DNA from: Prochlorococcus sp. AG-402-L18
Lineage (GTDB): Bacteria > Cyanobacteriota > Cyanobacteriia > PCC-6307 > Cyanobiaceae
Reading direction: 5' to 3'
Length of the DNA stretch: 64,000 nucleotides
Assembly (NCBI GenBank): GCA_003216725.1
Contig: QCIL01000005.1
Span: forward strand, 1-64,000
Part shown: piece after piece, positions 12,456 to 13,101 of the stretch
Position numbering within the stretch: position 1 is the stretch's first letter
Layout: each line of letters starts with the position of its first letter
Notes under the pieces: generated by a model
What the model saw: the letters and a program-made list of their open reading frames with translations, nothing else
Database searches by the model: none
What the model was told of the DNA's origin: nothing
Translations under genes and position numbers: made by a program

Positions 12456-13022
12456 TTAAGATTTTACTTTTTCTTTAATATTAGAGGATTTACTTTCTGA
12501 AAGTTTTGTATTTACAGGGTTAGATTCATCTGATTTAGAATCTGTATTTTCTATTGATTCTACTTTTTCTTTAATATTAGAGGATTTACTTTCTGAAAGT
12601 TTTGTATTTTCAGGACTAGATTTATCTGATTTAGAGTCTGTATTTCCCATTGATTCAATATTCTCTTTTTCTTTTTTTTCTGATTGGGCACTAACTTTAT
12701 TAGAGGCTCTTGGTGTAGGTAAAGGACCTTCTTGCTTGACAGTCATGTATCTTATTACATCTTCACTTAGACGCATTGCTTTTTCAATTTTAAAAATGTG
12801 TTGTCCATCTCCATTATGACTTAGCTGTACATAAATTCCTTCCCTATGCTTAGCTATTTGATAAGCTAGTCGCCTTTTTCCTCTCATTTGGCTGTCAAGA
12901 ACTTTACCACCTAATTCTTCAAGTAATTTATTATATTTTTCAATATGATTATTAACTTCATCCTCTGCTATATCAGGGCGAAGGATATACATTGTTTCGT
13001 AATAAGTTTGTTGATTAGTCAT
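12456..13022 (-). CDS. rpsF: 30S ribosomal protein S6 with long repetitive tail
   Basis: Ribosomal small-subunit protein S6, binding 16S rRNA together with S18. The S6 core ([14 protein letters not shown], then [17 protein letters not shown] and [12 protein letters not shown]) covers roughly residues 4-100. The start chosen is ATG 13022 (MTNQQTYYE), which puts the core near the N-terminus; the frame is open to 13085 but that extension does not resemble S6. After the core is a Ser/Lys/Glu/Asn-rich tail of about 80 residues, built partly of two nearly identical 32-residue units ([20 protein letters not shown]). The total of 188 residues is well above the usual 95-140. Confidence 0.95.
12466..12657 (-). 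repeat. Two tandem 96-bp repeats inside rpsF tail
   Basis: Copies span about 12466-12561 and 12562-12657, with a 96-base period and only a few differences. Each encodes a 32-residue unit, so the reading frame is kept. The pattern suggests recent slippage or unequal-crossover duplication within the S6 tail. Confidence 0.85.
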
Positions 13023-13028
13023 AGTTTT

Positions 13029-13070
13029 CAGACAAGGTCTTAGGCTCATCGTTGTATGTATGAGCGTCTG
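13029..13070 (-). promoter_or_regulatory. Structured rpsF leader (candidate S6 autoregulatory hairpin)
   Basis: Read on the minus strand, an outer stem CAGAC/GTCTG encloses an inner perfect stem GCTCAT/ATGAGC with a 10-base loop. The two stems abut on the 5' side, and a 10-base bulge (CTAAGACCTT) lies on the 3' side. It ends 6 bases before the rpsF ATG. Bulged leader hairpins upstream of rpsF are known to bind the S6:S18 complex in other bacteria. I infer the same role but do not see the classical CCG bulge. Confidence 0.4.
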
Positions 13071-13073
13071 TTC

Positions 13074-13101
13074 ATTATTAACCATACATTAAGATGTGCA
13101 A
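13074..13101 (-). promoter_or_regulatory. Candidate rpsF promoter
   Basis: On the minus strand TTGCAC (13101-13096) is followed after 16 bases by AATAAT (13079-13074). The predicted start is near 13067, so the leader hairpin would form the very 5' end of the transcript. The site lies in the 105-base gap between the aroE stop and the rpsF start. Confidence 0.4.

What the first reader, a model, noticed from the sequence alone, without database searches (positions are those of the whole stretch)
13029..13101. Promoter plus bulged hairpin at the very 5' end of the rpsF mRNA
A TTGCAC-N16-AATAAT promoter would start transcription at the base of a two-part stem (CAGAC/GTCTG enclosing GCTCAT/ATGAGC) with a 10-base 3' bulge, ending 6 bases before the ATG. 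This resembles in design the S6:S18-binding leaders of other bacteria, without the classical CCG bulge, so it could be a diverged version.
Basis: partly seen in the sequence, partly recalled or inferred. Interest (0 to 1): 0.5.

Follow-up and report, generated by a model that had tools for sequence, protein, structure and literature searches.

The report
Divergent S6:S18 leader before rpsF
The messenger RNA for ribosomal protein S6 in this Prochlorococcus probably begins with a small bulged hairpin that is an altered cyanobacterial form of a known self-control switch, by which spare S6 and its partner S18 shut down S6 production.

Summary
The hairpin is real, conserved and not coding: CAGAC-GCUCAU / AUGAGC-(10-nt bulge)-GUCUG, 6 nt before the rpsF ATG (minus strand, 13070-13029). 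It is in 49 of 49 fetched same-genus loci. A covariance model trained on the family finds one site in the genome; its family hits lie directly before rpsF in 101 of 101 checkable cases. In 17 loci of other Cyanobiaceae the outer stem is mostly UCCGUC/GUCGGA. In most of 30 loci from other families it is UCCUU/AAGGA, so the Shine-Dalgarno is one strand of the stem. There the inner helix covaries strongly, and a model of those leaders finds the E. coli S6:S18 leader (RF02893) as its only hit in that locus. The bulge keeps the two cytosines needed in E. coli. The third base is not G, and this genome's 16S site also reads CCA. Differences from E. coli: no Shine-Dalgarno in the stem, CCU not CCG, rpsR unlinked. 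Models trained outside the genus score this leader weakly or not at all, and no binding data exist. New variant of a known kind.

The parts
13081..13086 (-). Probable -10 element TATGGT (TATCGT in most relatives)
   Evidence: Columns 87-99% conserved; TANNNT at this offset in 49 of 49 same-genus loci; the counterpart lies exactly 6 nt before the stem in 16 of 17 other Cyanobiaceae and 16 of 22 other cyanobacteria, at most 5 at any offset in 5000 mononucleotide shuffles
13071..13074 (-). Region of the predicted transcription start, 1-4 nt before the hairpin
   Evidence: Inferred from the distance to the -10; not mapped
13066..13070 (-). Outer stem P1, 5' strand CAGAC
   Evidence: Sequence; pairs with 13029-13033; pairing probability 0.85 in this sequence
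13060..13065 (-). Inner stem P2, 5' strand GCTCAT
   Evidence: Sequence; pairing probability 0.99 for its first four pairs
13050..13059 (-). Hairpin loop, variable in length and sequence
   Evidence: loop columns vary and carry gaps
13044..13049 (-). Inner stem P2, 3' strand ATGAGC
13034..13043 (-). 10-nt 3' bulge CTAAGACCTT; its CC is 13037-13036
   Evidence: CC invariant in 60 of 60 aligned leaders; matches the position of the two cytosines of the E. coli bulge UGAAUAAUCCGU
13029..13033 (-). Outer stem P1, 3' strand GTCTG; the place occupied by the Shine-Dalgarno AAGGA in most sampled cyanobacteria of other families
12456..13022 (-). rpsF, ribosomal protein S6, 188 aa, single-gene unit
   Evidence: PF01250 E 2.5e-27 and TIGR00166 equivalog; aroE upstream on the same strand, argG convergent downstream

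Best explanation
It is the autoregulatory leader of rpsF, a cyanobacterial form of the S6:S18-binding leader. Transcription starts a few bases before the hairpin, so the mRNA begins with it. When S6 and S18 exceed free 16S rRNA, their complex binds the bulge (S18 contacting the CC) and clamps the two stems. That holds the 5' strand across the site 6 nt before the ATG, where the 30S subunit must load, and S6 translation stops. Shown here: the structure, its conservation, the compensatory changes, the single site before rpsF, the CC in rRNA and leader alike, and the conserved S18 contact residues. Inferred: the start site, protein binding, and repression. In most of the other cyanobacterial families sampled the outer stem contains the Shine-Dalgarno. 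In Prochlorococcus it does not, so there the block must act by occupying the loading site rather than by hiding a Shine-Dalgarno. Because rpsR is elsewhere, only S6 is controlled here.
For: Conserved hairpin directly before rpsF: model R1 hits 127 of 300 family genomes at E 0.01, all 24 listed genomes of the genus among them, one site each; 101 of 101 hits with printed rpsF coordinates are adjacent and on the same strand, 26 could not be checked; one site in the own genome. Pairing in 60 leaders 94.8%, 0 of 500 shuffles, with A-U to C-G at one outer pair in 17 rows. Other cyanobacteria: inner-stem positions 3-6 pair in 83 of 88 cells (22 of 30 loci) against 61.1 +- 2.8 when strands are swapped between species, 0 of 20000; 12-row alignment with 4 of 6 inner pairs changed on both sides. 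R2 finds the E. coli RF02893 leader as the only hit in its locus. CC at the expected place before the Shine-Dalgarno in 28 of 30 other cyanobacterial leaders and in 60 of 60 aligned Cyanobiaceae leaders; these cytosines are the ones mutated in E. coli with loss of regulation (PMC4647458, passages). Own 16S reads ACACCAGTGG. S18 keeps K60, R61, R63 (KRAR) here and in 26 of 30 other genomes. Start-site geometry.
Against: No binding or reporter data. RF02893 does not match (0 of 388 class genomes over cut-off). R2 finds none of the leaders in 17 other-Cyanobiaceae loci and not the window's, and misses 4 of 18 held-out cyanobacterial loci even at E 1. R3, trained on 16 other Cyanobiaceae, misses the window and 48 further genus loci with default filters and gives only 7.4 bits, E 0.5, with filters off, though at the right place. 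RNAalifold on A1 predicts only the inner stem. The outer-stem compensatory change is probably one event, and in shuffles 2 such pairs arise often (285 of 500). The fourth outer pair is not a standard pair in 17 of 17 other Cyanobiaceae rows (U.U in 15), and their outer stem is weak in silico (median 0.09, 3 of 17 above 0.5), as is the Shine-Dalgarno pairing in other cyanobacteria (2 of 21 above 0.5). R1 misses 173 of 300 family genomes (29 of the 300 had no rpsF match). The third base of the triplet does not track the 16S base.
Confidence: 0.78

Rival explanations
1. A 5'-terminal hairpin that only protects the rpsF mRNA from 5'-end-dependent decay; conserved for stability, with no ribosomal protein ligand.
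For: The predicted start lies right at the hairpin in most loci tested, as expected for a 5' cap hairpin.
Against: It does not explain the invariant CC in the bulge, the narrow range of bulge length, the closeness to the ATG, or the match of the broad cyanobacterial form to the E. coli leader.
Confidence: 0.1
2. An S6-only or otherwise different ligand: the hairpin regulates rpsF but is not read by an S6:S18 complex, since rpsR is not in the operon.
For: rpsR is on another contig here (C2) and absent from the 0.6-1.5 kb flanks of 165 cyanobacterial rpsF loci; no clear second site at rpsR.
Against: The CC is the S18 contact in E. coli (PMC4647458, passages) and S18's contact residues are kept; S6 and S18 assemble as a heterodimer (same paper).
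Confidence: 0.08
3. A DNA operator: the palindromic inner stem is a binding site for a transcription factor overlapping the start.
For: GCTCAT/ATGAGC is a DNA inverted repeat close to the promoter.
Against: The letters of the stems change between groups while pairing is kept, with G-U pairs and loops from a few to about 100 nt; a DNA site would keep letters and spacing.
Confidence: 0.02
4. Part of a longer S6 coding region (the in-frame ATG at 13085) or a terminator of aroE.
For: An open frame of 209 aa starts at 13085.
Against: Loop and spacer lengths vary by single bases between relatives, so no frame is kept; no terminator-like site.
Confidence: 0.01

Closest known systems
RpsF_leader, Rfam RF02893 (E. 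coli S6:S18 leader)
   Same: Directly before rpsF; outer stem, inner hairpin, 3' bulge of 10-12 nt with CC two bases before the outer stem; ends next to the start codon.
   Different: No sequence match above cut-off; CCU not CCG; no Shine-Dalgarno in the outer stem; operon lacks rpsR, priB and rplI; leader only about 50 nt.
S6:S18 complex-binding motif of Matelska 2013 / Fu 2014 (original papers not held; known here through passages of PMC4647458 and PMC10931766)
   Different: The published motif has CCG; here CCU, and CCA in 24 of 30 other cyanobacteria.
Chlorobi S6:S18 leader (PMC7247131, passages and section 5)
   Same: A lineage-specific rpsF leader.
   Different: That one is reported not to resemble the rRNA; this one keeps the bulge and CC.

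Membership tests
S6:S18-binding rpsF leader | Lies in the 5' UTR of rpsF | tested here: met
   101 of 101 R1 sites with printed coordinates, 26 more not checkable; that it is transcribed is inferred
S6:S18-binding rpsF leader | Stem, 3' asymmetric bulge, hairpin | tested here: met
S6:S18-binding rpsF leader | Two cytosines in the bulge beside the outer stem | tested here: met
   60 of 60 in A1; 28 of 30 in other cyanobacteria
S6:S18-binding rpsF leader | CCG triplet | tested here: not met
   CCU here; own 16S site is CCA; CCG in 3 of 30 other cyanobacterial leaders
S6:S18-binding rpsF leader | Binds S6:S18 and represses rpsF | not testable with these tools
   None here
Rfam RF02893 RpsF_leader | Score at or above 37 bits | tested here: not met
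   No hit at the window leader; 0 of 388 class genomes over cut-off; among 14 control genomes it rings only in E. coli, not in B. subtilis, which is one of the controls and whose leader is reported to bind (PMC4647458), so the model is narrow
S6:S18-binding rpsF leader | Shared operon with rpsR (usual, not defining) | tested here: not met
   rpsR on contig C2; no S18 in the flanks of 165 cyanobacterial rpsF loci, found in the E. coli control

The most novel reading that the evidence does not exclude
In the Prochlorococcus lineage an ancient S6:S18 operator has been rebuilt. The Shine-Dalgarno that formed one strand of its outer stem in other cyanobacteria was lost, the stem was re-paired with new letters, and the recognition triplet keeps only CC. 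It now works as a 5'-terminal roadblock without a Shine-Dalgarno, on an mRNA that encodes only S6 while S18 comes from an unlinked operon, so S18 supply sets S6 synthesis.
Probability: 0.45. Interest if true: 0.55.

Novelty: new variant of a known kind. Interest (0 to 1): 0.42.

Why it matters
It ties a very abundant marine lineage, thought to rely little on Shine-Dalgarno sequences (PMC5607370, passage), to a ribosomal-protein feedback loop known from E. coli, with binding also reported for B. subtilis, and shows how such an operator can outlive the Shine-Dalgarno it once hid. It also shows that in these organisms CC, not CCG, is what leader and rRNA share, and it offers a case in which a heterodimer would control the gene of only one partner.

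Tried and rejected
Rfam at gathering and at E 10: only chance matches at the leader. RF02893 over the class: 24 weak matches in 18 of 388 genomes, none over the cut-off; the 20 fetched as loci have no S6 gene. R1 on E. coli, 30 other-family loci and L068-L076: hits only L070, a Cyanobiaceae leader (E 0.00048), and one chance match. R3 hits neither E. coli, nor the 30 other-family loci, nor the genus by default; its only hit in 60 further loci is L070, E 0.047. Search for a second operator at rpsR: none in the own genome with R1 over the whole genome or R2 at the rpsR locus; in 30 other rpsR loci 5 matches of E 0.29 to 5.5, best at L273. Idea that the third base of the triplet co-varies with 16S: rejected, since all three CCG leaders (L166, L167, L172) are in genomes whose matched 16S site is CCA, and G057 has CCG in 16S but CCA in the leader. 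Shine-Dalgarno sequestration in the free RNA of other cyanobacteria: weak by thermodynamics. The first run of that folding script gave no genus rows because of a too strict pattern and was repeated. Prochlorococcus start sites: PMC5607370 seen by passages only, rpsF not in its main text; Voigt 2014 seen only as a reference; supplements could not be read. Two papers from the listing were checked by word search: PMC2662882 and PMC2864571 do not name rpsF in the main text, the first mentions two unnamed ribosomal leaders in the passage seen. Rows dropped: one search used 22 of 30 loci (L148, L152, L156 no 5' anchor; L166, L168, L176 no 3' anchor; L170, L172 by a rule); L155 was mis-anchored by my script because its locus is short, and was left in, counting against pairing. 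A4 used 12 of 30 loci, those with an anchor and equal bulge length. A1 used 60 distinct of 66 leaders; 9 other Cyanobiaceae loci (L068-L076) did not match the pattern. R3 used 16 of 17; L067 failed the pattern. The MAFFT alignment A3 of 15 leaders was misplaced at the inner stem and not used.

Full report
What is there. The window is Prochlorococcus by its nearest named relatives: the best 80 of 409 encoding stretches found are records titled Prochlorococcus or uncultured Synechococcaceae, among them MIT 9314. rpsF lies on the minus strand, ATG at 13022 (PF01250, TIGR00166), with aroE upstream on the same strand and argG convergent downstream. Between aroE and rpsF the hairpin is as described: 5 bp outer stem, 6 bp inner stem, 10-nt loop, 10-nt 3' bulge, 6 nt to the ATG. 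It is the predicted fold of a 61-nt stretch starting there, z -2.9; in 47 of 49 same-genus leaders the outer stem, and in 49 of 49 the inner stem, has mean pairing probability above 0.5.

Conservation. All 49 loci of the genus fetched match. Of 80 named loci 75 fit a strict pattern; L254 is cut off, and L182, L195, L260 and L261 are variants. L182 replaces an inner-stem U-A by C-G and a C-G by U-G, L195 and L260 carry one U-G pair each, and L261 has one C-A mismatch (read by eye). The named loci and the unnamed ones probably overlap in genomes. The letters of the outer stem (74 of 75), the bulge CAAAGACCUU (65 of 75) and the upstream TATCGT are the fixed parts; loop and spacer vary by single bases, which excludes coding. 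Model R1, built from 60 Cyanobiaceae leaders, has one site in the own genome and hits 127 of 300 family genomes and 33 of 59 genera, with 24 same-genus genomes listed, all hit. All 101 sites for which the rpsF place had been printed lie next to it on the same strand; 26 could not be checked. R1 was trained on this family, so the count shows distribution and placement, not independent discovery. Many genera with larger genomes are not hit. Nine of 20 loci fetched (L068-L076) did not match the leader pattern; R1 still finds L070, and the other eight mostly keep a 5' half like UCCGUCGCU but look rearranged in the 3' half, by eye.

Covariation. Inside the family the evidence is modest: 94.8% of cells paired against 90.2% in shuffles, one outer pair A-U (43 rows) or C-G (17 rows), no standard pair at the fourth outer pair in the 17 non-genus rows (U.U in 15 of them), and an invariant inner stem core GCUC/GAGC. 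RNAalifold alone gives only the inner stem. Across the class the evidence is strong. The sample is 30 genomes from 30 other families. In 22 of these 30 loci, inner-stem positions 3-6 pair in 83 of 88 cells against a mean of 61.1 (maximum 74) when strands are swapped between species, 0 of 20000. In 12 equal-length leaders 4 of 6 inner pairs have changes on both sides. Four of five outer pairs there never vary (CCUU/AAGG), as expected if the 3' strand is the Shine-Dalgarno.

The chain to the known leader. E. coli: UUCCUU-GCCUCC...GGAGGC-UGAAUAAUCCGU-AAGGAG. Most other-family cyanobacteria: UCCUU-GCUUC...GAAGC-CAUUNNGUCCAN-AAGGA. Other Cyanobiaceae: UCCGUC-GCUCA...UGAGC-CUUCAGUCCUA-GUCGGA. This genus: CAGAC-GCUCA...UGAGC-CAAAGACCUU-GUCUG. 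R2, trained only on 12 cyanobacteria of other families, has a single hit in the E. coli locus, the RF02893 leader itself (14.4 bits, E 0.0086), and finds 11 of 18 held-out cyanobacterial leaders at E below 0.01, 3 more at E up to 1, and 4 not at all. It does not find the other-Cyanobiaceae leaders or the window's. R3, trained on 16 other Cyanobiaceae, finds neither the genus nor the other families by default; with filters off it puts its best hit in 3 kb of the window on this leader, at only 7.4 bits, E 0.5. So membership rests on place, architecture, the CC, start-site geometry and intermediates such as L261, which has the 11-nt bulge CUAACGUCCUA, like those of the other genera, with the CAGAC/GUCUG stem.

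The missing G. In E. coli the two cytosines of the bulge imitate C719 and C720 of 16S rRNA and their change abolishes regulation (PMC4647458, passages). Those cytosines are kept: 60 of 60 in A1 and 28 of 30 other cyanobacteria (CCA 24, CCG 3, CCC by the pattern 1). The 16S site of this genome reads ACACCAGTGG, so rRNA also lacks CCG; 85 of 194 class genomes matched the 16S pattern, most with CCA. That this stretch is the E. coli ACCGG site is recalled from the 16S sequence. The third base does not track between leader and rRNA. S18 keeps the contact residues in KRAR here and in 26 of 30 other genomes; in 4 my pattern found nothing.

Promoter. A TANNNT hexamer ends exactly 6 nt before the outer stem in 16 of 22 other cyanobacteria with anchor and enough upstream sequence and in 16 of 17 other Cyanobiaceae, while 5000 mononucleotide shuffles never exceeded 5 at any offset. 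In this genus the hexamer is TATCGT/TATGGT in most, 9 nt before the same reference base in 49 of 49. The start is thus predicted a few bases before the stem; it was not mapped.

How it works. Most likely translational feedback by the S6:S18 complex, as shown for E. coli (PMC4647458, introduction read). In most cyanobacteria the complex would lock the Shine-Dalgarno into the outer stem; free RNA alone does so weakly (2 of 21 above 0.5), so protein would be needed. In Prochlorococcus, reported as probably not relying on Shine-Dalgarno (PMC5607370, passage), the stem is strong by itself and carries no Shine-Dalgarno, so the bound complex would block loading of the ribosome just before the ATG. 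rpsR is not linked: another contig here, and no S18 gene in the 0.6-1.5 kb flanks of 165 cyanobacterial rpsF loci, with the E. coli control found. A review says rpsF and rpsR share a transcription unit in most groups (PMC10931766, passage). No clear second operator at rpsR was found.

Novelty. The kind is known. A wide spread over phyla is stated in PMC4647458 and PMC10931766; whether Cyanobacteria were in the original lists I could not see, as both original papers are not held. Listings for S6S18CBM (no paper), for cyanobacteria with rpsF leaders, and for Prochlorococcus with rpsF and leader (one unrelated paper) showed no description of this form; two listed papers word-searched do not name rpsF. 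Most subscription papers and all supplements are outside this search. I rate it a new variant of a known kind.

Noticed in passing
window 12460-12656: The C-terminal tail of this S6 holds a 96-base tandem repeat, 2.1 copies at 92%, giving a duplicated, serine- and charge-rich tail; S6 is 188 aa here, while the open frames at the same-genus S6 matches are mostly 163-177 aa.
   Followed up: partly
L147-L176 and L050-L067, bases just before the leader: A -10-like TANNNT hexamer ends exactly 6 nt before the rpsF leader hairpin in 16 of 22 and 16 of 17 loci, so promoter and hairpin appear to have evolved as one unit.
   Followed up: yes
L068, L069, L071-L076: In several larger-genome Cyanobiaceae the leader mostly keeps a 5' half like UCCGUCGCU but its 3' half seems rearranged, with longer bulges and other pairing (by eye).
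   Followed up: no
L273 1371-1407: A weak R2 match (14.5 bits, E 0.29) near an rpsR gene; probably chance, but the one place where a second operator could be looked for.
   Followed up: no
G000:C6:32942-32965: The 16S site that corresponds to the S18 contact reads ACACCAGTGG (CCA) in this genome and in most cyanobacteria matched, with CCG or CCT in some lineages.
   Followed up: partly
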